In this document: positions 32,002 to 44,238 of the stretch, piece after piece
Numbering within the stretch: the first letter of the stretch is position 1
How the letters are laid out: every line of letters begins with the position of its first letter
Source of the DNA: Paraburkholderia sp.
Lineage (GTDB): Bacteria > Pseudomonadota > Gammaproteobacteria > Burkholderiales > Burkholderiaceae
Reading direction: 5' to 3'
Assembly (NCBI GenBank): GCA_031286755.1
Contig: JAITTX010000342.1
Span: forward strand, 1-56,150
Length of the DNA: 56,150 nt
Made by a program: the position numbers and the translations under genes
The notes under the pieces: model-generated
Database searches by the model: none
What the model was told of the DNA's origin: nothing
What the model saw: the letters and a program-made list of their open reading frames with translations, nothing else

Positions 32002-32330
32002 CTGCTGTCCTCTGATTGTCCATAATATGGACGTTAAGTCCACGATGTGACTCATTGTGCGGGATAGGTTTGATTCAGGTCAATGCCAGGGTTTGCCCCA
32101 GGCGGCCTGCGTTCATCGCATATAAATATGGATAACTAAGTAATTGGCGAGGCGTGGCGACCTCGAACGTCAGGGCAAACTTGTATCGCTCGCGCGCGGA
32201 TTCGGTCATGGCCATGAGGGTTGCGCCCGATGAAACGCGTACCTCGTGAAGTGCCGCCGCCTCGCGTGTGTGCCCGGCTTTCTCGCGTTAGAATCAGCTT
32301 TCGATTCTTCATCTCTTGCCGGAGGCAAAC
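32002..32330. other. Divergent intergenic region
   Basis: About 330 bp between the cupin dioxygenase operon and the class V aminotransferase gene. Apart from the double palindrome near 32018-32042 it holds an AT-rich patch at 32118-32144 (ATATAAATATGGATAAC) suited to a promoter. I see no coding frame. Confidence 0.5.
32018..32042. promoter_or_regulatory. Two overlapping palindromes, probable IclR-type operator
   Basis: GTCCATAATATGGAC (32018-32032) is a perfect palindrome. TGGACGTTAAGTCCA (32028-32042) is a second one with 5-bp arms, and the two share the central TGGAC. They lie 17-41 bp upstream of the first gene of the cupin/SDR/MFS operon. Confidence 0.65.
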
Positions 32331-33458
32331 GTGCCAGGCTTACTTCCCAATGTCGATCGCGAGGGGCTCCTCGAATACTCAGTGGTCTACACCGACCGCT
32401 CGATCAACCATATGTCGCAGCTCTTCCAGGGCGTCATGCGCGATATTTCCAGCACCCTGAAGAAGGTCTACGACGCGAAGTCGGTCGTGGTGGTCCCGGG
32501 TAGTGGAACGTTCGGCATGGAGGCGGTTGCCCGGCAGTTCGCGACGAACAAGAAGTGCCTGGTCATCCGCAATGGCTGGTTCAGTTTCCGCTGGTCGCAG
32601 ATTTTCGACATGGGCGGTATTCCGTCCGAATCGATCGTGCTGAAGGCGCGTCCGGTTGAACAGGGCAGGCAGGCCGCCTATGCGCCGGCACCCATCGACG
32701 AAGTGGTTGCCGCGATCAAGGAGCACAAACCGGATCTGGTCTTTGCGCCGCATGTCGAAACCGCATCCGGCATGATGCTGCCCGACGATTACTTGCGCGC
32801 GGTGGCCGACGCCGTGCATGCCGTTGGCGGCATGTTCGTGCTCGATTGCATTGCTTCCGGCACGATCTGGGTCGACATGGAGGCCAGCGGCGTCGACATT
32901 CTGATCAGCGCGCCACAAAAGGGCTGGAGCGCTTCGCCGTGCTGCGCGCTGGTCATGCTCAGCCCGCTCGCGCGCGAGCGAATCGACGCAACCACCAGCA
33001 CCAGCTTCGCCTGCGATCTGCGCAAATGGCTGCAGATCATGGAAGCCTACGAGGGCGGCGGGTTTGCTTACCACGCCACGATGCCCACGGACAGCCTCGC
33101 GACGCTGCGCGACGTGATCAAGGAAACCGAGGCATACGGCTTCGACAAGGTGCGGGCGGAGCAGCTCGAACTCGGCAAGCGCATTCGCGCGCTGCTGGCC
33201 AGCAAAGGATTCCGGAGCGTGGCCGCCGAAGGCTATCAGGCGCCGGGCGTGGTGGTCTGCTACACCGACGACGACGGCATCCGGTCGGGCAAGAAGTTCG
33301 CCGACGCCGGCTTGCAGATCGCGGCCGGCGTTCCCTTGCAATGCGATGAGCCTGCGGACTTCAAGACCTTCCGGCTTGGATTATTCGGGCTGGAAAAACT
33401 GCATGACATCGACGGTGCGGTCGACCGGTTCGCCAGGGCACTGGAGCGCATTCTTTAA
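32331..33458 (+). CDS. Class V aminotransferase (alanine/serine-glyoxylate type)
   Basis: Predicted 375-aa fold-type I PLP enzyme related to alanine-glyoxylate and serine-glyoxylate aminotransferases. Visible features: VVVVPGSGTFGMEAVARQFA (cofactor loop), LVFAPHVETASGMMLPDDYL, FVLDCIASGTIW with the PLP Asp, the Schiff-base Lys197 in SAPQKGWSASPCCA, and a C-terminal FRLGLFGLEKLHDID. GTG 32331 was selected because GGAGG lies 5 nt upstream; an in-frame TTG at 32316 lies before that site. It precedes the RpiR operon by ~370 bp and may or may not belong to the same pathway. Likely moves an amino group between an alpha-amino acid and glyoxylate or pyruvate. Confidence 0.88.
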   Translation: MPGLLPNVDREGLLEYSVVYTDRSINHMSQLFQGVMRDISSTLKKVYDAKSVVVVPGSGTFGMEAVARQFATNKKCLVIRNGWFSFRWSQIFDMGGIPSESIVLKARPVEQGRQAAYAPAPIDEVVAAIKEHKPDLVFAPHVETASGMMLPDDYLRAVADAVHAVGGMFVLDCIASGTIWVDMEASGVDILISAPQKGWSASPCCALVMLSPLARERIDATTSTSFACDLRKWLQIMEAYEGGGFAYHATMPTDSLATLRDVIKETEAYGFDKVRAEQLELGKRIRALLASKGFRSVAAEGYQAPGVVVCYTDDDGIRSGKKFADAGLQIAAGVPLQCDEPADFKTFRLGLFGLEKLHDIDGAVDRFARALERIL

Positions 33459-33765
33459 AAAATGAAGGGGGCTGCTGCATCATCGAGCGACGCCCCCGGC
33501 ACTACTGCGCCAGCGCCGCGAGCAACGGGTTCTTGACGATTGCCGTTGCCCGGGGCTGGCGACTGCCCCCCGCGGCACGGCCGAAATCCGCCTCACTCTC
33601 CCCATCCCCTTTGCCGCACGAGTTCGACAGAACGCGCGGCGGCCGGGCCGAACCGCATGCCTGGATACGCCATAGGCAGCGGCGCGGAATTGTTCCGACG
33701 AATCGATTCACCCGGACCTCGCTTCCGCCGCTTTCGGCAGGAGGATGGGGTTTTAAATTTTCTTG

Positions 33766-33794
33766 TTGACACCGGAGTTTCGTATACGTACTTT
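33766..33794 (+). promoter_or_regulatory. Predicted sigma-70 promoter of the RpiR operon
   Basis: A perfect TTGACA (33766-33771), 17-bp spacer, then TACTTT (33789-33794). The start of RNA would fall near 33801, inside the adjacent palindrome. This is why I place the rpiR start codon at 33826, not at the upstream ATG codons. Confidence 0.6.
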
Positions 33795-33816
33795 TATGAA
33801 ACCAAAGTTTCATAAA
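33793..33816. promoter_or_regulatory. Probable RpiR operator (10-bp inverted repeat)
   Basis: TTTATGAAAC and GTTTCATAAA are exact inverted repeats around CAAA. The site overlaps the -10 region and predicted transcript start, a position suited to autorepression. A further GTTTC half-site lies at 33778-33782. Confidence 0.65.
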
Positions 33817-33825
33817 GACGATGCC

Positions 33826-34668
33826 ATGACTTCGAAGTTGCACGACAGGATTCTCGAGCTTCAGGACCAGTTCACCGAAAGCGAGCGCCGCCTCGCGCAG
33901 GTCACGCTCGAATGCATCGGCAACCTCGCCGCTTATACCGGCGCGGAGCTCGCCCAGCGCGCGGGCGTCTCGAAGGCGAGCGCCGGCCGCTTCTTCCGCC
34001 GCCTCGGTTACGAGAATTTCAACGAAGTGCGCGCGCTGGCGCGCGACGAGGCCGACCTCGGCTCCCCCTTGCGCGAACTGGCGCATATCGACGATTCGGC
34101 AGCCAACCCGGCTGCGCGGCATCTGGCCAACGACCTGCAGAATCTCTCGAAGACCTTCGAGCGCCTCGACCCCGACGACGTGCGCCAGGTGAGCGCGCTC
34201 CTGAAAAGCGCGCGCAAAGTCTATATCGCGGGCTTTCGCAATGGCCGCGTGGTGGCACAGTACGCATGGGCGCTGCTCACGCAGTTGCGTGGCGATGTGG
34301 CGCTCGTGCCCGGCGCGGGTCTCAATCTCGCGGAGGATCTCGCCGATCTCGGCGCGCGCGATCTGCTGCTCGTGATGGACTTTCGCCGTCGCGTGTCGCT
34401 GCTGCGCCCGATGGTCGAGCACGCCAACCGCGTGAATGCCAAGGTCGTGATCCTGACCGACCCGACCGCGACGGAGTTGCCCGCGCGCTCGGATGTCGTG
34501 CTGCGCTGCGTGAACCGCGGCTCGGCGCTGTTCGATTCGTATGTCGCGGCCATCAGCGTCGTGAACCACCTGTGCGGCACCTTCGCGAGAACACTCGGCG
34601 ACGCGGCGCGCGAGCGGCTCGAAAGCATCGAGACGCTGCATGAACACTACGGCGATCTGCATCGCTGA
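33826..34668 (+). CDS. RpiR-family transcriptional regulator
   Basis: Predicted 280-aa regulator with an N-terminal HTH_6 domain (residues ~1-75: LHDRILELQDQFTESERRLA, LAQRAGVSKASAGRFFRRLG) and a C-terminal SIS sugar-isomerase-like domain (KVYIAGFRNGRVVAQYAWAL, LVMDFRRRVSLLRPMVEHAN, VVILTDPTATELPARSDVVL). SIS domains normally sense phosphosugars, but RpiR members also control amino-acid and purine catabolism. It heads a plus-strand series of amidohydrolases and DpaL, 21 bp before dpaL, so it should regulate that set. I chose ATG 33826 because upstream ATGs precede or overlap the predicted transcript start. Confidence 0.92.
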   Translation: MTSKLHDRILELQDQFTESERRLAQVTLECIGNLAAYTGAELAQRAGVSKASAGRFFRRLGYENFNEVRALARDEADLGSPLRELAHIDDSAANPAARHLANDLQNLSKTFERLDPDDVRQVSALLKSARKVYIAGFRNGRVVAQYAWALLTQLRGDVALVPGAGLNLAEDLADLGARDLLLVMDFRRRVSLLRPMVEHANRVNAKVVILTDPTATELPARSDVVLRCVNRGSALFDSYVAAISVVNHLCGTFARTLGDAARERLESIETLHEHYGDLHR

Positions 34669-34689
34669 TTCCATCGAAAGGAGATTCCC

Positions 34690-35922
34690 TTGACTCATCC
34701 GCTTCCCCACGTCCGTCTGCAGGCGGCGCTCAATCCCGCCGTCGAGCCGCGCGCGCCGTATGGCGAGCCGCAGCGCGCCATTCTGGGCGGCCAGGCATGG
34801 ACCGAGGCGCAGGCGCAAATCACGCGCTGGCCCGGCTACGCGCCCACCCCGCTGCGCACACTGGATGGCCTCGCCCGCGCGGCGGGCATCGCGCAGATTC
34901 TCTACAAGGACGAAGGCGGCCGCTTCGGCCTCGGCAGCTTCAAGGCGCTTGGCGGCGCCTATGCGGTGAGCCGGCTGCTCACGCGCGAAATCATGGCGCG
35001 CACCGGCGCGGCGCAGGTCGGCATCGACGATCTGCTTGCGGGCCGCTATGAGGACATCACGCGCGAGATCACGGTGACTTGCGCGACGGACGGCAATCAC
35101 GGGCGTTCGGTGGCGTGGGGCGCGCAACGCTTCGGCTGCGCCTGCGTGATCTACGTGCATGCCACCGTGAGCGAGGGCCGCAAGGCCGCGATCGAGCACT
35201 ACGGCGCACAGGTCGTGCGCACGGCCGGCAACTACGACGACTCGGTGCGCGAAGCGGCCGCCGACGCGGCTCGCCTCGGGCGCTTCGTGGTTTCCGATAC
35301 CTCGTACGAGGGCTACATGGACGTGCCGCGCGACGTGATGCAGGGTTATGCGGTGATGGCCGACGAGGCGCTGGCGCAGTTGCCGGACGCCGCGCTGCCC
35401 ACCCATGTGTTTCTGCAGGGTGGCGTGGGCGGTCTGGCCGCCGCCGTGTGCGCCCACTTCTGGGAGCGGCTCGGCGAGCGGCGCCCGCGCATCGTCGTGG
35501 TCGAGCCCGACAAGGCCGCCTGTCTTTACGAGAGCGCGCGCGCAGGGCAGCCCGTCGCCGTGCACGGCGATCTCGACACGGTCATGGCCGGTCTGGCGTG
35601 CGGCGAGGTCTCGCTGCTCGCGTGGTCGATTCTCAAGCCGGGAGCCTTCGGATTCCTGACGATCGACGACGAGGCCGCGCTCGATACGGTTCGCCTGCTG
35701 GCCTCGGGGCGCTACGGCGACGCGCCTGTGGTGGCCGGGGAGTCGGCGGTGGCGGGTCTCACGGGCTGTCTCGGCGCGCTCGCCGACGCAACCGTGCGCG
35801 CGCAGCTCGGCCTCGATGCGGCCAGCCGCGTGCTGGTGTTCGGCAGCGAGGGCGCGACGGACGCGGAGCTGTATCAGCGCATCGTCGGGCGCACCGCCGA
35901 GGCGGTGAGGATGGCCGCATGA
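34690..35922 (+). CDS. dpaL: Diaminopropionate ammonia-lyase DpaL (YgeX type)
   Basis: Predicted 410-aa PLP enzyme of fold type II. DpaL cleaves D- or L-2,3-diaminopropionate to pyruvate and two ammonia. The PLP lysine is Lys85 in GLGSFKALGGAYA. The rest matches the family: PLRTLDGLARAAG, YKDEGGRFGLGSFK, VTCATDGNHGRSVAWGAQRF, VSDTSYEGYMDVPRDVMQGY, FLQGGVGGLAAAV and VVAGESAVAGLTG. The start is TTG 34690 with AAAGGAG upstream, also giving the family N-terminus. Its stop overlaps the next start by 4 nt. Association with carbamoyl hydrolases suggests it receives diaminopropionate released from a substituted precursor. Confidence 0.93.
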   Translation: MTHPLPHVRLQAALNPAVEPRAPYGEPQRAILGGQAWTEAQAQITRWPGYAPTPLRTLDGLARAAGIAQILYKDEGGRFGLGSFKALGGAYAVSRLLTREIMARTGAAQVGIDDLLAGRYEDITREITVTCATDGNHGRSVAWGAQRFGCACVIYVHATVSEGRKAAIEHYGAQVVRTAGNYDDSVREAAADAARLGRFVVSDTSYEGYMDVPRDVMQGYAVMADEALAQLPDAALPTHVFLQGGVGGLAAAVCAHFWERLGERRPRIVVVEPDKAACLYESARAGQPVAVHGDLDTVMAGLACGEVSLLAWSILKPGAFGFLTIDDEAALDTVRLLASGRYGDAPVVAGESAVAGLTGCLGALADATVRAQLGLDAASRVLVFGSEGATDAELYQRIVGRTAEAVRMAA

Positions 35923-37184
35923 GCGCCGCGCCCGACAAGGCATGCGCCGCCGCGCAGGAGGCCGCGCCGCGCATCGATCTCGCGCGGCTGCTCGCGCGCA
36001 TCGAGGCGCTGGCGCAGGTCGGGGCGATCGAAGGCGGCGGCGTCTGCCGTCTCGCACTGAGCGACGAGGATCGCGCGGGGCGCGATCTCGTGGCCGGCTG
36101 GATGCGCGAACTCGGCCTCGACGTGACGATTGACGCGATCGGCAATGTGGTCGGCGTGCGCGCGGGCCGCGAGGCGCTCGCGCCGGTAATGACCGGCTCG
36201 CATATCGACACGGTGCGCACGGGCGGCCGCTACGACGGCAATCTGGGCGTGCTGGCGGGCCTCGAAGTCATCGCCGCGCTCAACGACGCCGGCATCGTCA
36301 CGCGCCGGCCCGTCGCGATGGCGTTCTTCACGAACGAAGAAGGTGCGCGCTTTGCGCCGGACATGATGGGCAGCCTCGTGTGTCAGGGCGGCTTGCCGCT
36401 GGACGAGGCGCTGCGCACCAAGGGGATCGACGGGACGACGGTGGGCGAGAATCTCGCGCGCATCGGCTATGCGGGGGACGCGCCTGTGGGCGCGCGCGAG
36501 GTGCACGCGTTCGTCGAGCTGCATGTGGAGCAGGGGCCGCTGCTCGAGCACGAGGGCGTCACGATTGGCGCGGTGACGGGCGTGCAGGGCATCCACTGGA
36601 CCGAGTTCGTGGTGGAGGGCACGTCGAACCACGCGGGCACGACGCCGATGGCGTTGCGTCACGACGCAGGCATCGTGGCCATGCAGATTGCCTGCCATGC
36701 CCGCGAAGTGGCGCGCGAATTGAGTGGCGGCCAGCTCGCGACCGTGGGCCATATGAAGCTCACGCCCGATCTCGTCAACGTCATTCCGAACCGCGCCGAA
36801 TTTACGCTCGATCTGCGCAATACCGACGCCGGCGTGCTGGCGGAAGCCGTGCAGCGCGTGTTCGCCTTTGCGCAGGCTGCGGCCCAGGCGGAGGGCGTGC
36901 GCATCACGCACCGCTCGCTCGCGGACTTCGCGCCGGTTGCCTTCGACGAGCGCATCGTCTCGCGCGTGGAAGCCATCGCGCGGCAGCGCGGCCATAGCGT
37001 GCGCCGCATGCCGAGCGGCGCGGGCCACGATGCGCAGATGCTCGCGCGCATGTGTCCAGCAGGCATGATCTTCGTGCCCAGCGTGGCGGGGCTGTCGCAC
37101 AACGTGGCCGAGTATACGCACGGCCACGATATCGAAGCGGGCGCGGGCGTGCTGCTCGACCTGCTTATGGAATTAGCCGGCTAA
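35919..37184 (+). CDS. M20-type Zn-dependent hydrolase (allantoate amidohydrolase / N-carbamoyl-L-amino acid hydrolase family)
   Basis: Predicted 421-aa binuclear metallohydrolase. Metal ligands are visible in VMTGSHIDTVRTGGRYDGNL (His, Asp), FFTNEEGARFAPDMMGS (Glu-Glu), VELHVEQGPLLEHEG (His) and GLSHNVAEYT near the end (His). The dimerisation domain holds GTSNHAGTTPMALRHDA and the substrate Asn/Arg in VIPNRAEFTLDLRN. The family removes carbamoyl or ureido groups, releasing ammonia and CO2. ATG 35919 overlaps the dpaL stop, so the two enzymes are translationally coupled. Substrate inferred to be a ureido or N-carbamoyl amino acid upstream of DpaL. Confidence 0.9.
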   Translation: MSAAPDKACAAAQEAAPRIDLARLLARIEALAQVGAIEGGGVCRLALSDEDRAGRDLVAGWMRELGLDVTIDAIGNVVGVRAGREALAPVMTGSHIDTVRTGGRYDGNLGVLAGLEVIAALNDAGIVTRRPVAMAFFTNEEGARFAPDMMGSLVCQGGLPLDEALRTKGIDGTTVGENLARIGYAGDAPVGAREVHAFVELHVEQGPLLEHEGVTIGAVTGVQGIHWTEFVVEGTSNHAGTTPMALRHDAGIVAMQIACHAREVARELSGGQLATVGHMKLTPDLVNVIPNRAEFTLDLRNTDAGVLAEAVQRVFAFAQAAAQAEGVRITHRSLADFAPVAFDERIVSRVEAIARQRGHSVRRMPSGAGHDAQMLARMCPAGMIFVPSVAGLSHNVAEYTHGHDIEAGAGVLLDLLMELAG

Positions 37185-37204
37185 AAACCAGGTATTTTTT
37201 TAGC
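37180..37204 (+). terminator. Weak AT-rich hairpin after the M20 hydrolase gene
   Basis: GCTAAAAA (37180-37187) pairs with TTTTTAGC (37197-37204) and CTTTT follows. The left arm includes the stop codon. The stem is mostly A-T, so at best a partial terminator or processing site within the series. Confidence 0.3.
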
Positions 37205-37257
37205 TTTTACGTGAAATTCGATTAGTACGCCATAGCGACTATCAGGAGGATTTTTCC

Positions 37258-38202
37258 ATGTCACGCATCATCAACGTCGCTGCCGCCCAGCTCGGCCCCA
37301 TCGAGCGCTCGCATTCACGCCGGGAGGTCGTCCAGCGCCTGCTCGCGCACCTGCGCGAGGCGCATGCGATGGGCTGTCACCTCGTGGTGTTTCCCGAGCT
37401 TGCGCTCACGACCTTCTTCCCGCGCTGGTACGCCGAGGACATCACGGAAATGGACGCGTTCTACGAGCGCCAGATGCCGGGCCCGGAAACGCAGATCCTC
37501 TTCGACACCGCGAGGCAACTCGGCATCGGCTTCTATCTGGGCTATGCGGAACTCAGCGTCGAAGCGGGGCGGGTGCATCGCTACAACACGGCGATTCTGG
37601 TTGGGCAGAGCGGCGAGATCGTCGGCAAGTATCGCAAGGTGCACTTGCCGGGCCACGCCGCGCACGAGCCGTGGCGCGCGTTCCAGCATCTGGAGAAGTA
37701 CTACTTCGAGCCCGGCGAGCGTTTCGACGTGTGGCGCGCTTTCGGGGGCGTGCTCGGCATGGCGCTGTGCAACGACCGGCGCTGGCCGGAAACCTACCGC
37801 GTGATGGGGCTGCAAGGCGCGGAGATGATTCTGCTCGGCTACAACACGCCGGTGCACAACCCTCCCGCGCCCGAGCACGACGACCTGTCGATGTTCCATA
37901 ACCATCTCGTGATGCAGGCGGGCGCGTATCAGAACGGAACGTGGGTGGTGGGCGTCGCGAAGGCCGGCAACGAGGCGGGCTGCGAAATGATCGGCGGCAC
38001 CTGCATCATCGCGCCTTCGGGCGAGATTGTCGCGGCCTGCTCGACCAAGGGCGACGAACTCGCCATCGCGCGCTGCGACCTGAGCCTGTGCGACTCGTAC
38101 AAGAACACCACCTTCAATTTCGAGCGGCACCGCCGTCCGGAAGCCTATGGGCTGATCACCGAACGCCGCGGCGCCGTGAGGCCCGCATCGCTCGCCGCTT
38201 AA
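37258..38202 (+). CDS. N-carbamoyl-D-amino acid hydrolase (D-carbamoylase, nitrilase superfamily)
   Basis: Predicted 314-aa nitrilase-fold amidase closely resembling the Agrobacterium D-carbamoylase, which splits N-carbamoyl-D-amino acids into the D-amino acid, CO2 and ammonia. The triad is complete: Glu47 in VVFPELALTTFFPRWY, Lys127 in GKYRKVHLPGH, Cys171 in GMALCNDRRWPETYRVMG. YFEPGERF, GYNTPVHNPPAPEHDDL and GAYQNGTWVVG also follow the family. AGGAGG precedes ATG 37258. No hydantoinase gene is present in the window, so the carbamoyl substrate is probably taken up as such. Confidence 0.92.
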   Translation: MSRIINVAAAQLGPIERSHSRREVVQRLLAHLREAHAMGCHLVVFPELALTTFFPRWYAEDITEMDAFYERQMPGPETQILFDTARQLGIGFYLGYAELSVEAGRVHRYNTAILVGQSGEIVGKYRKVHLPGHAAHEPWRAFQHLEKYYFEPGERFDVWRAFGGVLGMALCNDRRWPETYRVMGLQGAEMILLGYNTPVHNPPAPEHDDLSMFHNHLVMQAGAYQNGTWVVGVAKAGNEAGCEMIGGTCIIAPSGEIVAACSTKGDELAIARCDLSLCDSYKNTTFNFERHRRPEAYGLITERRGAVRPASLAA

Positions 38203-38207
38203 GCGGC

Positions 38208-38265
38208 GCGCCCCCCTCCCCGCCGTGATGGATGCGAGCGCCCACGGGCGCCCGCAGGGGGGCGC
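38208..38265 (+). terminator. Long hairpin between D-carbamoylase and MFS genes (terminator or attenuator)
   Basis: GCGCCCCCCT (38208-38217) pairs exactly with AGGGGGGCGC (38256-38265), followed by TTTA. An inner GCGCCC/GGGCGC hairpin lies in the loop. It starts 6 bp after the stop codon and ends 32 bp before the next start codon. Confidence 0.5.
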
Positions 38266-38296
38266 TTTACCTGAAAAATGCCGAAGGAGAACCAAC

Positions 38297-39628
38297 ATGA
38301 GTGATTCCCTGCAGATTTCGTCCGCGGACGCGATGTCCGCCACGCCCGCTACGCTCGCCGTGAACGATCATGCGCTCTATCGCAAGGTTGCGAGGCGTCT
38401 GCTGCCGTTTCTGATGGTGTGTTATGTGGCGGCCTTTCTCGACCGCGTCAACGTGGGCTTTGCGAAGCTGCAGATGCTCGCCGACCTGAACTTCAGCGAG
38501 ACGGTGTACGGGCTCGGCGCGGGGATCTTCTTCATTGGCTATTTCTTGTTCGAGGTGCCGAGCAATGTTCTCATGCACCGCATCGGCGCGCGCAAGACGC
38601 TCGCGCGCATCATGATCCTGTGGGGCTGCGTCTCCGCGCTGATGATGTTCACGCGCACGCCGTGGCAGTTCTACCTGCTGCGCTTTTTGCTGGGCGCGGC
38701 CGAAGCGGGCTTCTATCCCGCCATCATTCTCTACCTGACCTACTGGTTCCCCTCGAACCGGCGCGCCCAGGTGGTGGCGACCTTCATGGCGGCGGTGCCG
38801 CTCGCGGGCATCATCGGCGGGCCGCTGTCGGGCGGCATCATGAGCGCGCTGCATAGCCACCACGGCATCGCCGGCTGGCAGTGGATGTTTCTCATCGAGG
38901 CGGTGCCGTCGCTCGTGCTCGGCGTGGCGGTGCTCGGCTATCTCGACAACCGCATCGGTGACGCCAACTGGCTGAGCGCGGCAGAAAAAGCCCGCCTCGA
39001 AGAGAATCTGCGCGGCGAACGCAGCACGCGCACCGAGCACGTCTCGCTCTGGCAACTGCTGCGCGACCGCCGCGTGCTGCACATGGCGCTGATCTGCTAT
39101 TGCACGGTGTCGAGTCTGTCCGGCCTCGCATTCTGGGTGCCGTCCATCATCAAGGCGACGGGCGTTGCCTCGCTCTTCACGGTGGGCCTGCTCACGGCGA
39201 TACCGAACCTCTTCGCCGTGGTTTCGATGGTGCTCGTCTGCCGCCATTCGGACGCCACCCGCGAGCGCCGCTGGCACATGATCGTGCCGTTTCTCGTGGG
39301 CGGCAGCGGCCTCATGCTCAGCACGCTCTTCAGTCACAACCCGGTGCTTGCCGTGGCGATGCTCTCGGTGGCGTCCGCGGGCTGCATGGTGTGCTCGCCG
39401 CTGTTCTGGAGCCTGCCCACGGCCTTCCTCGATGGCAAGAGCGCGGCTGCCGGCATCGCGGGCATCAACGCCTTCGCGGGGCTTGCCGCCTTCGCGAGCC
39501 CCTATGTGATCGGCTGGTGCAAGGACCTGACCGGCAGCACGAATTCGGGCATGTATTTTCTCGCGAGCTTCACGGTGCTGGGCGCGATTCTCGTCTACCT
39601 CACGCCGAGCAAACTCGTCGACCGCTGA
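38297..39628 (+). CDS. MFS transporter, ACS family, of the DpaL/carbamoylase locus
   Basis: Predicted 443-aa 12-helix importer. Motifs: FLDRVNVGFAKLQMLADLNF, GLGAGIFFIGYFLFEVPSNV, LLGAAEAGFYPAIILYLTYW and the charged loop CRHSDATRERRWHM. AAGGAG precedes ATG 38297. It is similar to the importer at the tetronate locus (same FLDRVNVGFAKLQM and RERRWH segments), so the two are probably paralogues. Its place among the amidohydrolases suggests uptake of an acidic or zwitterionic amino-acid derivative. Confidence 0.92.
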   Translation: MSDSLQISSADAMSATPATLAVNDHALYRKVARRLLPFLMVCYVAAFLDRVNVGFAKLQMLADLNFSETVYGLGAGIFFIGYFLFEVPSNVLMHRIGARKTLARIMILWGCVSALMMFTRTPWQFYLLRFLLGAAEAGFYPAIILYLTYWFPSNRRAQVVATFMAAVPLAGIIGGPLSGGIMSALHSHHGIAGWQWMFLIEAVPSLVLGVAVLGYLDNRIGDANWLSAAEKARLEENLRGERSTRTEHVSLWQLLRDRRVLHMALICYCTVSSLSGLAFWVPSIIKATGVASLFTVGLLTAIPNLFAVVSMVLVCRHSDATRERRWHMIVPFLVGGSGLMLSTLFSHNPVLAVAMLSVASAGCMVCSPLFWSLPTAFLDGKSAAAGIAGINAFAGLAAFASPYVIGWCKDLTGSTNSGMYFLASFTVLGAILVYLTPSKLVDR

Positions 39629-39650
39629 AACCTTTTGACGGAGTGACTTC

Positions 39651-40799
39651 ATGTTGAGCGACGTAATCACGTTGACGCAGGAAATGGTTCGCGTGCCGAG
39701 CCTTTCGGGCAACGAGGCGGGTGTGGCGGAACTGGTGGCCGGGCGTATGCGCGCCCTCGGCTTCACCGACGTGCGCACCGACCGCAACGGCTCGGTCCTC
39801 GGGCTGGCGGGGCCGGAGGATGCCGAAGTGGCGCTGCTGTTCGATGGTCATCTCGACGTCGTGCCCGTGGTGGGCGAGTGGCGCTTCGATCCGTTCGGCG
39901 CGACGATTCATGAAGGGCGCCTTTATGGACGCGGCAGCACCGACATGAAAGGCGGGGTGGCCGCCGCGATCTGCGGCGTGGCCGCGGCGGCGCGCGAGGG
40001 CAAGCTCGTGCGGCGCGTGGGCGTCTCTGCAAGCGTGCTGGAGGAGGTGATCGAGGGCCACGCGCTCGGCTCGGTGCTCGATCTGTGCCAGCCCGCGGCC
40101 GTGGTGATCTGCGAACCGTCGAAGCTCGAAGTGCGAACTGGGCAGAAGGGCCGGCTCGAACTGTCGCTGACGCTGCACGGCAAGCCGGCGCATGCCGCTT
40201 CGCCGCATCTGGGCGTGAATCCATTGCACGCGGCGGCGCGCGCGCTGCTCGCGCTCGAGAGTCTGACGCTGCCGACCGACCCGGCGCTCGGGCCCGCGCT
40301 GCTCGTGCCGACCGATATCGTTTCGTCGCCGTATCCATCGATCTCGATGATTCCCTCGGCCACGACGATTCGCTTTGACCGCCGCACGTTGAGCGGCGAG
40401 ACCGCGGAGGACGTGCTGAGTGAGATACGCGGGCATCTCGCGAAGCACGGCATCGACGACTACACGCTAACGATCACCGACGACGCCGTGCAGACCTTCA
40501 CGGGAATCGAGGCCCGCCCGACGCGCTGGTTGCCGGCATGGAGCCAGCCCGTGGAGGCCCCGCTCGTCAAGCAGGCCTTCGAGGCGCTGACGCGCGCGGG
40601 CGTGTCGCCGCGCGCGGGAAGCTGGCCGTTCTGCACGAACGGCTCCGAGTCCGCGGGGCGGCGGCGCATTCCGACCATCGGGCTGGGGCCGGGCCGCGAG
40701 GAGGACGCGCATACGATCGACGAATCGATCGCGCTCGATCAGCTCGAGGCGGCGCGGGAGATCTATAAACAGCTCACATGGATTGCTTGCGCAGCTTGA
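39651..40799 (+). CDS. M20 family metallohydrolase, YgeY / ArgE-DapE-like
   Basis: Predicted 382-aa hydrolase of the acetylornithine deacetylase / succinyl-diaminopimelate desuccinylase group, closest in layout to YgeY, which neighbours DpaL (YgeX) in E. coli. Metal ligands: LLFDGHLDVVP, YGRGSTDMKGGVAAAI, the Glu pair in SVLEEVIEGHA, Glu in VICEPSKLEV, and His in EEDAHTIDESI. The lid domain contains KPAHAASPHLGVNPLHAA. It starts 22 bp after the MFS gene and ends the series. It could remove an N-acyl group from diaminopropionate or a related amino acid; YgeY itself has no established substrate. Confidence 0.9.
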   Translation: MLSDVITLTQEMVRVPSLSGNEAGVAELVAGRMRALGFTDVRTDRNGSVLGLAGPEDAEVALLFDGHLDVVPVVGEWRFDPFGATIHEGRLYGRGSTDMKGGVAAAICGVAAAAREGKLVRRVGVSASVLEEVIEGHALGSVLDLCQPAAVVICEPSKLEVRTGQKGRLELSLTLHGKPAHAASPHLGVNPLHAAARALLALESLTLPTDPALGPALLVPTDIVSSPYPSISMIPSATTIRFDRRTLSGETAEDVLSEIRGHLAKHGIDDYTLTITDDAVQTFTGIEARPTRWLPAWSQPVEAPLVKQAFEALTRAGVSPRAGSWPFCTNGSESAGRRRIPTIGLGPGREEDAHTIDESIALDQLEAAREIYKQLTWIACAA

Positions 40800-41008
40800 G
40801 TGCGCGGTTTTGCGGCGGACGGGGAGCGGTCGATGCGCACGCGCTCCCTGCCAAACATTCGCTATTGCGGGGGCCGGACGAGCGTTAGGGCATGCCCGGG
40901 GTGAGTCGCAAAAGCGAACATCAGATGGAAAGAATTCGCTATACGGCGCGTCATCGGCGTCGATATAGTCGAGCGCATATAAACAGGAGAAAGCAGGAGA
41001 CATCCACG

Positions 41009-41929
41009 ATGACACAGGCAGCCTTGCGCGGCGTGTTCCCGGTCGCCCCCACCATCTTCGACGACCAGGGCCGCCTCGATCTCGACGGCCAGCGGCGCGC
41101 GATCGACTTCATGATCGACGCCGGATCCCAGGGTATTTCCATACTCGCCAATTTTTCCGAGCAATTCTCGCTTTCCGACGACGAGCGCACGACGGTGCAG
41201 AATGTCGTGCTCGAACACGTGGCCGGCCGCGTGCCAGTGATCGTCACCACCACGCATTTCAGTTCCGACGTCTGCGCCGCGCGCAGCCGTGCCGCGCAGG
41301 ACGCGGGCGCGGCGATGGTGATGATCATGCCGCCCTATCACGGCGCCACGATCCGCGTGGCCGAGCGCGGCATTCACGAGTTCTACCGGCGCGTGTCCGA
41401 TGCGATCGAGATTCCGATCATGATTCAGGACGCGCCCGTCTCCGGCACGCCGCTCAGCGCGCCGTTCCTCGCCCGCCTCGCGAAGGAAGTGCAAAACGTC
41501 TCGTACTTCAAGATCGAATGCCCGCAGGCGGCCGCCAAGCTGCGCGAGCTGATCGAGCTGGGCGGCGACGCGATCGTCGGCCCGTGGGACGGCGAGGAGG
41601 CCATCACGCTGCTCGCCGATCTAGATGCGGGCGCAACGGGTTCGATGACGGGCGGTGGCTACCCGGACGGCATTCGCAAGATCGTCGACGCTTATGCGGC
41701 CGGCCATGTGGAGCAGGCCGCCGCGCTCTACCAGCAGTGGCTGCCGCTCATCAACTTCGAGAACCGCCAGGCCGGCCTCGGCGCCTGCAAGGTGCTGATG
41801 AAAGAAGGCGGCGTGATCGCCTCCGACGCAGTGCGCCATCCGCTGGCGCCCATGCATCCGGCCACCCGCGAGGGCCTGCTCAAGGTCGCGCGACGCCTCG
41901 AACCGCTCGTGCTGAGCTGGGGCCGCTGA
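41009..41929 (+). CDS. DHDPS-family dehydratase, L-2-keto-3-deoxyarabonate dehydratase-like
   Basis: Predicted 306-aa class I aldolase-fold lyase. It resembles the Azospirillum L-2-keto-3-deoxyarabonate dehydratase (AraD1) along its length as I recall it: GVFPVAPTIFDDQGRLDLDG, FMIDAGSQGISILANFSEQF, VMIMPPYHGATIRV with the catalytic Tyr, Lys168 in SYFKIECPQAAAKLRELIEL, and GPWDGEEAITLLADLDAGAT. The reaction removes water from a 2-keto-3-deoxy acid to give alpha-ketoglutarate semialdehyde. AGGAGA precedes ATG 41009. The arabonate dehydratase and semialdehyde dehydrogenase genes are not here, so the true substrate may be another deoxy keto acid. Confidence 0.88.
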   Translation: MTQAALRGVFPVAPTIFDDQGRLDLDGQRRAIDFMIDAGSQGISILANFSEQFSLSDDERTTVQNVVLEHVAGRVPVIVTTTHFSSDVCAARSRAAQDAGAAMVMIMPPYHGATIRVAERGIHEFYRRVSDAIEIPIMIQDAPVSGTPLSAPFLARLAKEVQNVSYFKIECPQAAAKLRELIELGGDAIVGPWDGEEAITLLADLDAGATGSMTGGGYPDGIRKIVDAYAAGHVEQAAALYQQWLPLINFENRQAGLGACKVLMKEGGVIASDAVRHPLAPMHPATREGLLKVARRLEPLVLSWGR

Positions 41930-41962
41930 TCCCGCGCAGACCGTCACAAGGAGTCCACCCCG

Positions 41963-43270
41963 ATGAATTCCACCTCCGCCCAGACCCGGACGCAATCCCT
42001 GCGGATGACGAGTGTCCGCTGGAAAATCTTCTTTCTGCTGTTGACGCTGGTGTCGATCAACTACATCGATCGCGCGGCGCTATCGGTCGCGATGCCGATG
42101 ATCTCGAAGGAGTTCGAGCTCACGCCGGAGCGTCAAGGCCTGATTCTCAGTTCGTTCTTCTGGACCTATCTGTTCATGCAGATGCCGTCCGGCATGCTCG
42201 CCGACCGCTTCAAGCCGCGCATCATCATCGCCGTGGCCACGCTCGGCTGGGGCTTCTTCCAGGGCCTCGCCGCGTTCTGCACGGGCTGGTTCTCGCTGCT
42301 GCTCACGCGCCTCGGCCTCGGCATCGCGGAAGGGCCGATCTATCCGGCGGGCGGCAAGCTCAACGCGCTGTGGCTCACGGCGAACGAGCGCACGCGCGGC
42401 GCTTCGCTGCTCGACAGCGGCAGCGCGCTGGGCTCGGGCCTCGGCGCGATCATCGTGGCCGGGCTCATCACGCTGCTGGGTTCGTGGCGCGACGCCTTCC
42501 TCGTCGCGGGTGTCGGCACGATGCTCTGCGGCCTGTGGGCATGGTGGTACATCCGCAATGCGCCGCGCGAGCATCCGCGCATCGGCGAGGCCGAAATCGC
42601 GCATATCGAGGAAGCGCTCGCGCGCGAGGACGCGGCCGAGCCGAAGGTGGCCTCGGGTGTCTCGTTCCTGCGCTTTTTCGGCTATCGCTCGGTGTGGGCG
42701 ATGTGCCTGAGCCATACCTGCACGAACCTGATTTTCTTCGGTCTGATGACGTGGCTGCCGACCTATCTGTACAAGGTCCACGGCTTCGACATCAAGGCGC
42801 TCGGCGGCGCGACGTTCATCATTTTCTTCTTTGGCTTCGTGGGCGAAGTGCTGGCCGGCCAGATCGCGGACCGCTGGAGAATGTCCGGCGCCGGCGCGAA
42901 CCGCGTCTACCGCACGATGATGGTGATTGGCGCGTCCTGTGTCGCGCTCTCGATGTGGGCGGTCGCCTATGTGAAGTCGCCGTTCGCCGTGGTCTCGCTG
43001 CTTTGCGCGGCGCTCTTTTTCCTGCGCTGGTGCGGCGGCTGCAACTGGGCCACGCCTTCGATGCTCGCCACGCGCGCCCGCGCCGGCGCGCTCACGGGGA
43101 TCATGAACTTCGTCGGCAACATCGCGGGCATTTTCGTGCCGATCTTCATCGGCTTCATCGTGCAGACCACCGGCTCGTACTTCCTCGCGCTGATGTTCTT
43201 CGTCGCGGTGGCCGGTGTGCAGATTCTGTGCGCGCTGTCGCTCAATTACCAGAAGAAGCTGCCCGTTTGA
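41963..43270 (+). CDS. MFS transporter, ACS family (hexuronate/glucarate type)
   Basis: Predicted 435-aa importer. The segment NYIDRAALSVAMPMISKEFE in helix 1, GLGIAEGPIYPAGGKLNALW, and the C-terminal MNFVGNIAGIFVPIFIGFIV are typical of ExuT/GarP-type transporters. It starts 33 bp after the dehydratase gene and is followed 17 bp later by a beta-hydroxyacid dehydrogenase, making a three-gene operon for a sugar acid. Confidence 0.93.
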   Translation: MNSTSAQTRTQSLRMTSVRWKIFFLLLTLVSINYIDRAALSVAMPMISKEFELTPERQGLILSSFFWTYLFMQMPSGMLADRFKPRIIIAVATLGWGFFQGLAAFCTGWFSLLLTRLGLGIAEGPIYPAGGKLNALWLTANERTRGASLLDSGSALGSGLGAIIVAGLITLLGSWRDAFLVAGVGTMLCGLWAWWYIRNAPREHPRIGEAEIAHIEEALAREDAAEPKVASGVSFLRFFGYRSVWAMCLSHTCTNLIFFGLMTWLPTYLYKVHGFDIKALGGATFIIFFFGFVGEVLAGQIADRWRMSGAGANRVYRTMMVIGASCVALSMWAVAYVKSPFAVVSLLCAALFFLRWCGGCNWATPSMLATRARAGALTGIMNFVGNIAGIFVPIFIGFIVQTTGSYFLALMFFVAVAGVQILCALSLNYQKKLPV

Positions 43271-43287
43271 ATCAGGAGACGAAACTC

Positions 43288-43323
43288 ATGAGCCGCGATA
43301 TGAGCCGCGATATGAGCCGCGAT
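43288..43323 (+). repeat. Tandem 12-bp repeat carrying three in-frame start codons
   Basis: ATGAGCCGCGAT occurs three times in direct succession, encoding MSRD each time, at the 5' end of the beta-hydroxyacid dehydrogenase gene. Copy-number change would keep the frame and alter only the N-terminal length. Confidence 0.9.
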
Positions 43324-44238
43324 AGCAACGCTTTACAACCGGTGAAACGCGTCGGGATGATCGGCCTCGGGCTGATGGGCAGCGCGATTGCCCACAACAT
43401 CCTGCGCCATGGCTTCGAGTTGACGGTGCTGGCGCACCGGCGTCGCGACGCGTTGACGAAGCTCGCGGACGCGGGCGCGAGCGAGGCGGCAACGGCCGCG
43501 GATCTCGCGCGCGAGGCCGACGTGGTGCTGATTTGCGTGACCGGCACGCCGCAGGTGCGAGACGTGCTGTTTCGGGAGGACGGCGTGCTGGCCGGCGCGC
43601 ATCCCGGGCTGATCGTGGTCGACAGCAGCACGTCCGATCCGGGGCTGGCCGCCGAGGCGGCGCACGCGCTGCAAGCGAAAGGCGCGGCGTTCGTGGACGC
43701 GCCCGTGAACCGCACGCCGAAGGAGGCCGCGCAGGGCAAGCTGAACGTGCTCGCGGGCGGCGAAGCGCCGGTGGTGGACGCGCTGCGGCCGCTGTTCGCG
43801 GCTTATGGCGAGACCGTGCATCACCTCGGCGCACATGGTTCGGGGTATCGCGCGAAGCTGATCCACAACTTCATCGCCCAGGCCAATGCCGTGGTGCTCG
43901 CGGAGGCCTTCGGGACCGCGCGCAAGGCGGGGCTCGATCTGGCCGAATTCGCTGGCGTGTGCCGGCTGAGCGGCGCGCATAGCAAGACGTTCGATCGCAT
44001 CGTCCCGTTCGTGCTGGAAGGCGACGACAGCGGCCAGCAGTTCGCGATGCGCAACGCGGCGAAGGACATGCGCTCGTACGCGGCGCTCGCCACCGAGGCT
44101 TCGTCGACGGCCATCGTGGCCGAGGCGGTGCGGCAGATCTATGTGCTGGCCTGCAACCTCGGGCACGGCGAGGCGTATGTGCCGCGCCTGTTCGATGTGA
44201 TCGACGCGCTCAACGGCGTAGAGCCGTCGCGGGCTTGA
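43288..44238 (+). CDS. Beta-hydroxyacid dehydrogenase (GarR / 3-hydroxyisobutyrate dehydrogenase family)
   Basis: Predicted 316-aa NAD(P)-dependent enzyme. The cofactor motif is VGMIGLGLMGSAIAHNIL, the substrate loop is DAPVNRTPKEAAQGKLNVLA, and the catalytic Lys is in GSGYRAKLIHNFIAQANAV. Such enzymes reduce tartronate semialdehyde or oxidise 3-hydroxy acids. AGGAGA precedes ATG 43288. The N-terminus is odd: a 12-bp unit is repeated three times, giving (MSRD)3 with an ATG in each copy before the conserved domain begins at ~residue 19. Last gene of its operon, convergent with the LysR gene. Confidence 0.92.
   Translation: MSRDMSRDMSRDSNALQPVKRVGMIGLGLMGSAIAHNILRHGFELTVLAHRRRDALTKLADAGASEAATAADLAREADVVLICVTGTPQVRDVLFREDGVLAGAHPGLIVVDSSTSDPGLAAEAAHALQAKGAAFVDAPVNRTPKEAAQGKLNVLAGGEAPVVDALRPLFAAYGETVHHLGAHGSGYRAKLIHNFIAQANAVVLAEAFGTARKAGLDLAEFAGVCRLSGAHSKTFDRIVPFVLEGDDSGQQFAMRNAAKDMRSYAALATEASSTAIVAEAVRQIYVLACNLGHGEAYVPRLFDVIDALNGVEPSRA

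What the first reader, a model, noticed from the sequence alone, without database searches (positions are those of the whole stretch)
33766..40799. RpiR-controlled DpaL plus carbamoyl-hydrolase cassette: candidate pathway for ureido or N-substituted 2,3-diaminopropionate
One strand holds RpiR, DpaL, an allantoate/L-carbamoylase-type hydrolase coupled to DpaL by ATGA overlap, a D-carbamoylase-type nitrilase with intact Glu47-Lys127-Cys171, an MFS importer and a YgeY-like M20 hydrolase. E. coli pairs ygeX-ygeY without known substrates. No hydantoinase is present, so the carbamoyl compound is probably imported ready made. DpaL yields pyruvate and two ammonia from 2,3-diaminopropionate. A ureido derivative such as albizziine (2-amino-3-ureidopropionate, found in mimosoid legumes) would fit: decarbamoylation gives diaminopropionate, then DpaL acts. 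Having both L- and D-type carbamoylases suggests stereochemically broad use. The substrate is my inference.
Basis: partly seen in the sequence, partly recalled or inferred. Interest (0 to 1): 0.75.

Follow-up and report, generated by a model that had tools for sequence, protein, structure and literature searches.

The report
Operon degrading ureido-diaminopropionate compounds
A six-gene bacterial operon probably imports a carbamoylated form of the amino acid 2,3-diaminopropionate, strips its carbamoyl groups and breaks the rest down to pyruvate and ammonia; in some relatives the same enzymes sit in one operon with genes like those of a recently found uric acid pathway, which points to its substrate.

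Summary
In detail: six genes as stated (RpiR, DpaL, AllC/L-carbamoylase family, D-carbamoylase-family nitrilase, MFS, YgeY-like M20), ATGA overlap, Glu47/Lys127/Cys171 intact. Homology to the nearest relative, Paraburkholderia unamae, stops at 33750 and 40799: one unit. Of 64 DpaL loci with at least 5 kb of right flank, 40 carry both carbamoylases, 21 of 22 where DpaL is at least 70% identical.

In 2025 E. coli YgeY plus YgeX were shown to turn albizziin into pyruvate, ending a reductive uric acid pathway that runs through 2,3-diureidopropionate. The key find: in Pleomorphomonas and kin, relatives of this DpaL, AllC and nitrilase stand in one operon with XdhD-, YgfK- and SsnA-like genes, the upper half of that pathway, without YgeW or YgeY (AllC in 14 of 14 loci with enough flank, nitrilase 13, DpaL 11). 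So the two carbamoylases probably remove the two ureido groups of 2,3-diureidopropionate. The window's genome shows no such upper half; its cassette looks like the lower half alone, fed by import. Substrate, stereochemistry and the YgeY-like enzyme's role are untested. New variant of a known kind.

The parts
33750..40799 (+). whole cassette: the block homologous to Paraburkholderia unamae L007; no match at E <= 1e-20 on either side of it in the flanks held
   Evidence: blastn of the window against L007: one main block 33750-40799, 87.5% identity over 7101 columns; one further 202-column hit inside the MFS gene to another place in L007
33826..34668 (+). MurR/RpiR-family regulator (HTH_6 + SIS); longest ORF from TTG 33763, likely start ATG 33826
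   Evidence: Pfam HTH_6 36.9 and SIS 35.4 bits, both over cut-off; no NCBIfam equivalog reached; a relative in 41 of 80 DpaL loci
34690..35922 (+). DpaL, 2,3-diaminopropionate ammonia-lyase (PLP, PALP fold); TTG start behind AAAGGAG
   Evidence: NF006058 521.8 over 276 bits; 39.6% identical to E. coli YgeX; PDB 5ygr and 4d9g
35919..37184 (+). AllC: M20 hydantoinase/carbamoylase-family amidase of a DpaL-linked clade; ATGA overlap with DpaL
   Evidence: TIGR01879 402 over 204 bits; metal and ligand residues invariant in 42 of 42 relatives; clade
37258..38202 (+). D-carbamoylase-family nitrilase-superfamily hydrolase, Glu47-Lys127-Cys171
   Evidence: best PDB relatives 8i99, 6lcg, 1fo6 (E 1.9e-127 to 3.8e-115), N-carbamoyl-D-amino-acid hydrolases; residues invariant in 43 of 43
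38297..39628 (+). MFS transporter, best models of the 2A0114 group; presumed importer
   Evidence: MFS_1 over cut-off; TIGR00893 328 and TIGR02332 HpaX 321 bits, both below cut-off
39651..40799 (+). YgeY-like M20 metallohydrolase
   Evidence: NF009555 361 over 321 bits, TIGR03526 210 under 321.5; 29% identical to E. coli YgeY; in 21 of 80 loci, always with the MFS gene

Best explanation
The cassette is an RpiR-regulated catabolic operon for N-carbamoylated (ureido) 2,3-diaminopropionate, in effect the lower half of a reductive uric acid pathway standing alone and fed by import. The MFS protein imports the compound. The D-carbamoylase-type nitrilase removes a carbamoyl group from the 2-amino position (D configuration). 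AllC, and perhaps the YgeY-like enzyme, removes it from the 3-amino position. DpaL splits the free diaminopropionate into pyruvate and two ammonia; each carbamoyl group gives CO2 and ammonia. The most likely full substrate is 2,3-diureidopropionate, with albizziine (2-amino-3-ureidopropionate) as intermediate or alternative substrate. Shown here: genes, families, intact catalytic residues, conserved linkage, block deletion, DpaL-linked AllC clade, operons that join the same enzymes to XdhD-, YgfK- and SsnA-like genes. Shown by others for E. coli relatives only: YgeY + YgeX on albizziin, and the pathway through 2,3-diureidopropionate. Inferred: substrate, which enzyme takes which group, import, regulation.
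For: Operons: a Pleomorphomonas-type SsnA-like gene is in 16 of 397 genomes of the order of Pleomorphomonas. I fetched all 16 places; 2 are cut off by contig ends. Of the other 14, all have YgfK-like and XdhD-like genes and AllC beside it, 13 the nitrilase and 11 DpaL, as one row of genes; no YgeW, YgeY or HyuA match at E <= 1e-12 in any. The XdhD-like protein passes TIGR03311 (870.8 over 830.45 bits). AllC of these operons is nested within the DpaL-linked clade, with the catalytic residues intact in 12 of 12 and those of the nitrilase in 11 of 11 newly fetched. Linkage: both carbamoylases in 40 of 64 DpaL loci, 21 of 22 at DpaL identity >= 70%; AllC within 12 kb in 15 of 35 phylum-sample genomes, ten genera. 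Achromobacter agilis L026 lacks AllC, nitrilase, MFS and most of YgeY through one clean gap against L018. AllC tree: 49 DpaL-linked rows and 3 others on one side of a 100/100 branch, 12 unlinked relatives on the other. Nitrilase keeps Glu47, Lys127, Cys171, Asn172, Arg174, Arg175, His129, His144 in 43 of 43; AllC keeps His95, Asp106, Glu140, Glu141, His202, Gln205, His238, Arg300, His394 in 42 of 42. Importers differ (MFS, TRAP, peptide-type ABC) around the same enzymes. E. coli YgeY + YgeX turn albizziin into pyruvate, and YgeX is stated to act equally on L- and D-diaminopropionate (PMC12507026, passages). 2,3-diureidopropionate is likened to allantoate and an R configuration has been proposed (PMC12990295). 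A solved AllC-family enzyme prefers beta-ureido acids (PMC10952681, abstract and passages).
Against: No substrate was tested. The SsnA-like and YgfK-like proteins of the Pleomorphomonas-type operons are below the curated cut-offs (249.9 under 455.5; 403.7 under 835.3, matching only the first 407 of 1012 positions), so uric acid as their substrate is inferred, and these operons lack HyuA; a D-hydantoinase over cut-off is elsewhere in 15 of 16 of those genomes, which is not specific. One of the 14 loci lacks the nitrilase and three lack DpaL nearby. The solved AllC relative is inactive on N-carbamoyl-D-amino acids, so a D-configured intermediate might suit AllC poorly. Three hydrolases are more than two carbamoyl groups need. 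Most DpaL genomes of the phylum sample lack the nitrilase near DpaL (30 of 35); three of 80 loci have the nitrilase without AllC over my threshold (L031 just under it, L033, L051); 4 of 8 nitrilases not linked to DpaL sit beside a hydantoinase. Vibrio hangzhouensis has the whole E. coli-type cluster and the cassette, so the compound would have two routes there. A source of 2,3-diureidopropionate for aerobic bacteria is not known to me.
Confidence: 0.7

Rival explanations
1. Mirror-image reading: the substrate carries one carbamoyl group, as in albizziine or N2-carbamoyl-diaminopropionate. AllC takes the L form and the nitrilase the D form, and DpaL accepts both.
For: The solved AllC-family enzyme of PMC10952681 is L-selective and the solved nitrilase relatives are D-carbamoylases. 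YgeX is stated to act on both isomers.
Against: The nitrilase family acts on the alpha-carbamoyl group; in albizziine the alpha-amine is free. Both enzymes kept in 40 of 64 loci, and both in 13 of 14 operons with upper-half genes, are easier to explain by two groups than by a racemic substrate.
Confidence: 0.13
2. Substrate with other acyl groups: N-oxalyl-, N-acetyl- or peptide-bound diaminopropionate, with the hydrolases acting as amidases.
For: M20 enzymes often remove acyl groups; in two DpaL-AllC loci without nitrilase (L104, L106) the third gene is an M20D enzyme like N-acetyl-diaminobutanoate deacetylase DoeB2, below that model's cut-off. Peptide-type ABC importers occur near some cassettes. 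Beta-ODAP is a plant diaminopropionate derivative (search listing).
Against: The nitrilase keeps every D-carbamoylase residue checked in 43 of 43, AllC belongs to the carbamoylase family, and the operons with XdhD-, YgfK- and SsnA-like genes point to purine-derived ureides.
Confidence: 0.08
3. In the window's own species the cassette is the lower half of a complete uric acid pathway whose upper half lies elsewhere in the genome.
For: The Pleomorphomonas-type operons join both halves. The own genome has four D-hydantoinase-family genes over cut-off.
Against: Own genome: best E. coli-type SsnA match 158 against 455.5 bits and no Pleomorphomonas-type SsnA at E <= 1e-45. Of 27 genomes searched with that type, 3 match: the two Pleomorphomonas genomes and Vibrio hangzhouensis, whose match is its own E. 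coli-type SsnA. The own genome is only 86% complete.
Confidence: 0.05

Closest known systems
Reductive uric acid degradation cluster (ygeW-ygeX-ygeY-hyuA-yqeA and ygfK-ssnA-xdhD of E. coli; UacX/UacY variant of C. difficile)
   Same: Ends with removal of ureido groups from diaminopropionate and cleavage by a DpaL; the window has a YgeY-like gene; in Pleomorphomonas-type operons the same DpaL, AllC and nitrilase families stand with XdhD-, YgfK- and SsnA-like genes.
   Different: No XdhD, YgfK, SsnA, HyuA or YgeW match in the window. YgeW (phosphorolysis) or UacY, and YgeY, would be replaced by a D-carbamoylase-type nitrilase and an AllC-type amidase. RpiR regulator and own importer.
D-hydantoinase / D-carbamoylase (hydantoin utilisation) clusters
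   Same: The same D-carbamoylase family.
   Different: No HyuA-like gene in the stretch held of any of the 40 loci with both carbamoylases; DpaL and AllC instead. Of 8 nitrilases not linked to DpaL, 4 do sit beside a hydantoinase.
Reductive pyrimidine (Pyd) pathway with an AllC-family beta-ureidopropionase
   Same: AllC-family decarbamoylation of a beta-ureido acid.
   Different: AllC relatives beside reductase- and hydantoinase-like genes (read by me as Pyd type) fall outside the DpaL-linked clade; no such genes in the cassette.

Membership tests
Diaminopropionate ammonia-lyase (DpaL) | score over the curated equivalog cut-off | tested here: met
   NF006058 521.8 over 276 bits; but TIGR03528 347 under 532
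Diaminopropionate ammonia-lyase (DpaL) | PLP lysine and active-site aspartates (positions recalled) | tested here: met
   RFGLGSFK, ATDGNHGR and SDTSYEGY align with the E. coli YgeX motifs
N-carbamoyl-D-amino-acid hydrolase (D-carbamoylase) | Glu-Lys-Cys triad and ligand residues | tested here: met
   Glu47, Lys127, Cys171, Asn172, Arg174, Arg175, His129, His144 in 43 of 43 relatives; residue roles from PMC11503299 passages and in part recalled
N-carbamoyl-D-amino-acid hydrolase (D-carbamoylase) | activity on N-carbamoyl-D-amino acids | not testable with these tools
   needs assay
Hydantoinase/carbamoylase-family amidase (AllC group) | TIGR01879 cut-off and metal/ligand residues | tested here: met
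   402 over 204 bits; residues in 42 of 42
Allantoate deiminase AllC proper | TIGR03176 equivalog cut-off | tested here: not met
   273 under 597.75 bits; two subfamily models named allantoate amidohydrolase are passed (NF006769 453.6 over 452, NF006771 424.3 over 399)
YgeY (E. coli ureido hydrolase) | curated cut-offs | tested here: inconclusive
   NF009555 met (361 over 321), TIGR03526 not met (210 under 321.5); 29% identity
Reductive uricolytic gene cluster, the window's genome | SsnA, the marker used in PMC12507026 | tested here: not met
   best 158 bits under 455.5; no Pleomorphomonas-type SsnA at E <= 1e-45; genome 86% complete
Reductive uricolytic gene cluster, the window's genome | HyuA, YgeW, YgfK, XdhD linked to DpaL | tested here: not met
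   no match in the window to the E. coli proteins at E <= 1e-6; D-hydantoinase family only on other contigs
Reductive uricolytic gene cluster, Pleomorphomonas-type operons | XdhD-, YgfK- and SsnA-type genes by curated cut-off | tested here: inconclusive
   L040: TIGR03311 selenium-dependent XDH met (870.8 over 830.45); TIGR03315 YgfK 403.7 under 835.3; TIGR03314 SsnA 249.9 under 455.5

The most novel reading that the evidence does not exclude
[quoted passage not shown] The window's cassette is the same lower half set free: a widespread salvage route in other Proteobacteria that feeds on diureidopropionate or albizziine made elsewhere, for instance by uric acid degraders.
Probability: 0.5. Interest if true: 0.7.

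Novelty: new variant of a known kind. Interest (0 to 1): 0.6.

Why it matters
DpaL is in 35 of 398 Pseudomonadota genomes, the E. coli-type uric acid marker SsnA in 1 (the threshold misses divergent SsnA, so this is a lower bound), so the known pathway does not account for most DpaL genes there. The cassette and the Pleomorphomonas-type operons give a directly testable function for many of them, predict the substrate of a clade of AllC enzymes, and bear on which ureido group is cleaved by what, which PMC12990295 lists as open.

Tried and rejected
Searches followed it up, and that section is rewritten. Odds changed for this reason only: best explanation 0.6 to 0.7, novel case 0.3 to 0.5, overall interest 0.5 to 0.6, two rivals down (0.2 to 0.13 and 0.15 to 0.08), and the interest of the novel case, which now covers more, 0.65 to 0.7.

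Looked for a conserved operator upstream of RpiR by aligning about 350 bases from the window and the Burkholderiales-type loci: no clear shared element in the part printed, so no binding site is claimed. The upstream aminotransferase (32316-33458) and downstream DapA-like, MFS and dehydrogenase genes (41006-44238) were rejected as parts: homology to P. unamae stops at 33750 and 40799, and in the 80 loci they have no relative at E <= 1e-20 except one weak dehydrogenase in L084. The DpaL paralogue on contig C567 has no AllC or nitrilase match beside it, but the contig ends 353 bases after it. The nitrilase tree is less clean than the AllC trees: DpaL-linked rows need 4 label changes, one hydantoinase-linked row falls inside, and many long branches are flagged. 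The AllC trees also carry long-branch or make-up warnings, and near-copies inflate clustering; their outside rows were picked by me (15; 13, two very long ones left out). One search used 23 of the 42 cassette rows. Counts drop relatives under 330 bits (AllC) or 300 bits (nitrilase); the 64-locus count drops 16 of 80 loci with under 5 kb of right flank. For one search I entered 18 of the 72 AllC hits and checked the other 54 by eye for contig and place. Transporter counts rest on broad ABC families and may include unrelated neighbours. A protein search with the nitrilase (8000 candidates scored, 120 listed) gave only names. No structure was predicted: close solved relatives exist.

Full report
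What is there. The window is contig C213 of an unnamed, 86% complete genome. The closest relative found is Paraburkholderia unamae (DpaL 93% identical). On the + strand lie an RpiR regulator, DpaL, an AllC/carbamoylase-family M20 amidase, a nitrilase-superfamily enzyme, an MFS transporter and a YgeY-like M20 enzyme. DpaL and AllC overlap by ATGA at 35919-35922.

Limits of the unit. Against P. unamae the window matches in one main block, 33750-40799, at 87.5% nucleotide identity; the flanks held (4.4 and 5.1 kb) do not match at E <= 1e-20. The cassette is therefore read as one inherited or transferred unit.

Linkage. I fetched 80 DpaL loci (126 relatives were found, the best 80 kept). Of 64 with at least 5 kb of right flank, 41 have AllC, 43 the nitrilase and 40 both within 10.5 kb; YgeY-like is in 21. 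By DpaL identity, both are present in 21 of 22 loci at 70% or more, 12 of 20 at 60-70% and 7 of 22 at 50-60%. Where the MFS and YgeY-like genes are absent (Alphaproteobacteria, Comamonas, Vibrio), TRAP or peptide-type ABC transporters often stand near. In Achromobacter agilis (L026) one clean gap against L018 removes AllC, nitrilase, MFS and most of YgeY.

Wider sample, with misses. In 398 Pseudomonadota genomes DpaL (E <= 1e-60) is in 35. Of these 35, the nitrilase is in 10 anywhere and within 12 kb of DpaL in 5; an AllC relative is in 30 anywhere and within 12 kb in 15, from ten genera; all 5 with the nitrilase linked also have AllC linked. So DpaL-AllC is the wider pair. Against this order, 3 of the 80 loci have the nitrilase without AllC over threshold (L031 just under it). 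In two DpaL-AllC loci without the nitrilase whose next gene I scanned, that gene is an M20D hydrolase.

Dedicated enzymes. In a tree of 64 AllC relatives the 49 DpaL-linked ones and 3 others lie on one side of a 100/100 branch; two of those 3 stand near a nitrilase relative. Twelve unlinked ones, three of them beside YgfK-like reductase genes, lie on the other side. Catalytic and ligand residues are invariant in 43 of 43 nitrilases and 42 of 42 AllC relatives.

Link to known chemistry. That was answered in 2025: E. coli reduces uric acid to yanthine (XdhD), then YgfK, SsnA and HyuA lead to 2,3-diureidopropionate; one ureido group is removed by YgeW (or UacY) and the other by YgeY, and YgeX makes pyruvate. 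YgeY plus YgeX act on albizziin (PMC12507026: abstract, sections 9 and 13, and passages). Two groups disagree on which ureido group goes first, and R configuration has been proposed (PMC12990295, whole text). The second group's paper (Liu et al. 2025) is not held; I know it only through that commentary.

The operons that join the halves. In Pleomorphomonas koreensis (L040) the order on one strand is DpaL, AllC, nitrilase, a 628-residue YgfK-like protein, an 881-residue XdhD-like protein and a 396-residue SsnA-like protein, closely packed and in part overlapping, with RpiR divergent; P. carboxyditropha (L039) is alike. The XdhD-like protein passes TIGR03311; YgfK-like and SsnA-like match the YgfK and SsnA models best but below cut-off. 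The SsnA-like gene is in 16 of 397 genomes of that order. All 16 places were fetched; two are cut off by contig ends. Of the other 14, AllC, YgfK-like and XdhD-like are in 14, the nitrilase in 13, DpaL in 11; YgeW, YgeY and HyuA in none at E <= 1e-12. Their AllC sequences form one clade (100/100) nested within the DpaL-linked clade that holds the window's AllC. A D-hydantoinase over cut-off is elsewhere in 15 of these 16 genomes, so ring opening could be supplied from outside the operon; that is inference.

Mechanism. (R)-2,3-diureidopropionate is at once an N-carbamoyl-D-type amino acid (2-position) and a beta-ureido acid (3-position). These are the specialities of the D-carbamoylase family and of some members of the AllC family; a solved member of the latter prefers N-carbamoyl-beta-alanine and is inactive on N-carbamoyl-D-amino acids (PMC10952681, abstract and passages). 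I therefore read the pair as dividing two positions. This is inference; the mirror-image reading stays open. YgeY-like, 29% identical to E. coli YgeY, may be a second 3-ureido hydrolase or act on another derivative.

The window's own case. E. coli-type SsnA passes its cut-off in 1 of 26 DpaL genomes searched, 23 of them with both carbamoylases linked (27 were asked for; L036 is not held), and the Pleomorphomonas type is in 3 of 27 at E <= 1e-45, not in the window's genome. E. coli-type SsnA is in 1 of 398 phylum genomes, a lower bound because the threshold misses the Pleomorphomonas type. Vibrio hangzhouensis has a full E. coli-type cluster and a separate DpaL-AllC-nitrilase-TRAP cassette. D-hydantoinase is over cut-off in 17 of 25 genomes searched; in the window's genome the four copies are on other contigs, one with a reductase-like and an AllC-family gene, two behind a transporter and a 242-residue gene. 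The substrate is thus probably imported.

Print. In the open-licence library I found no paper that links DpaL with these carbamoylases in an operon, nor one on Pleomorphomonas and uric acid. The three papers that hold both DpaL and hydantoinase were looked at by passage: two are gene lists, and PMC2276186 tabulates the E. coli-type cluster. Other papers not cited above were seen in listings only.

Noticed in passing
L039, L040, L151-L163 (order of Pleomorphomonas): Operon DpaL-AllC-nitrilase-YgfK-like-XdhD-like-SsnA-like: both halves of a probable reductive uric acid pathway with carbamoylases in place of YgeW/YgeY. In L158 and in L043 the nitrilase is split over two frames.
   Followed up: yes
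G000 contig C567 9775-10932 (L087): A second DpaL, 48% identical, beside a short gene that looks like an Lrp/AsnC regulator and a transporter-like gene; the contig ends 353 bases after DpaL.
   Followed up: partly
L047, L048, L050, L053, L057-L065: A different DpaL neighbourhood in MAGs labelled Acidiferrobacteraceae, Arenicellales or unclassified Proteobacteria: DAO oxidoreductase, arylmalonate-decarboxylase fold, class I GATase, DpaL, M24 creatinase-like peptidase. Another DpaL pathway without a known substrate.
   Followed up: partly
L104, L106: DpaL-AllC followed by an M20D hydrolase like DoeB2 (below its cut-off), without nitrilase.
   Followed up: partly
L070, L073, L077, L080, L082-L085: Acetobacteraceae/Rhodospirillales-type DpaL loci with TctC-type receptors or an epimerase-like gene and no carbamoylases over threshold in the flanks held.
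   Followed up: no
G000 contig C19 (L097): Two tandem units of an MFS gene (58% identical to the window MFS at 41963-43270), a 242-residue gene and a D-hydantoinase.
   Followed up: no
window 41006-44238: DapA-like aldolase, MFS and a 3-hydroxyisobutyrate-dehydrogenase-like gene (last label by eye), a separate likely catabolic unit downstream of the cassette.
   Followed up: no
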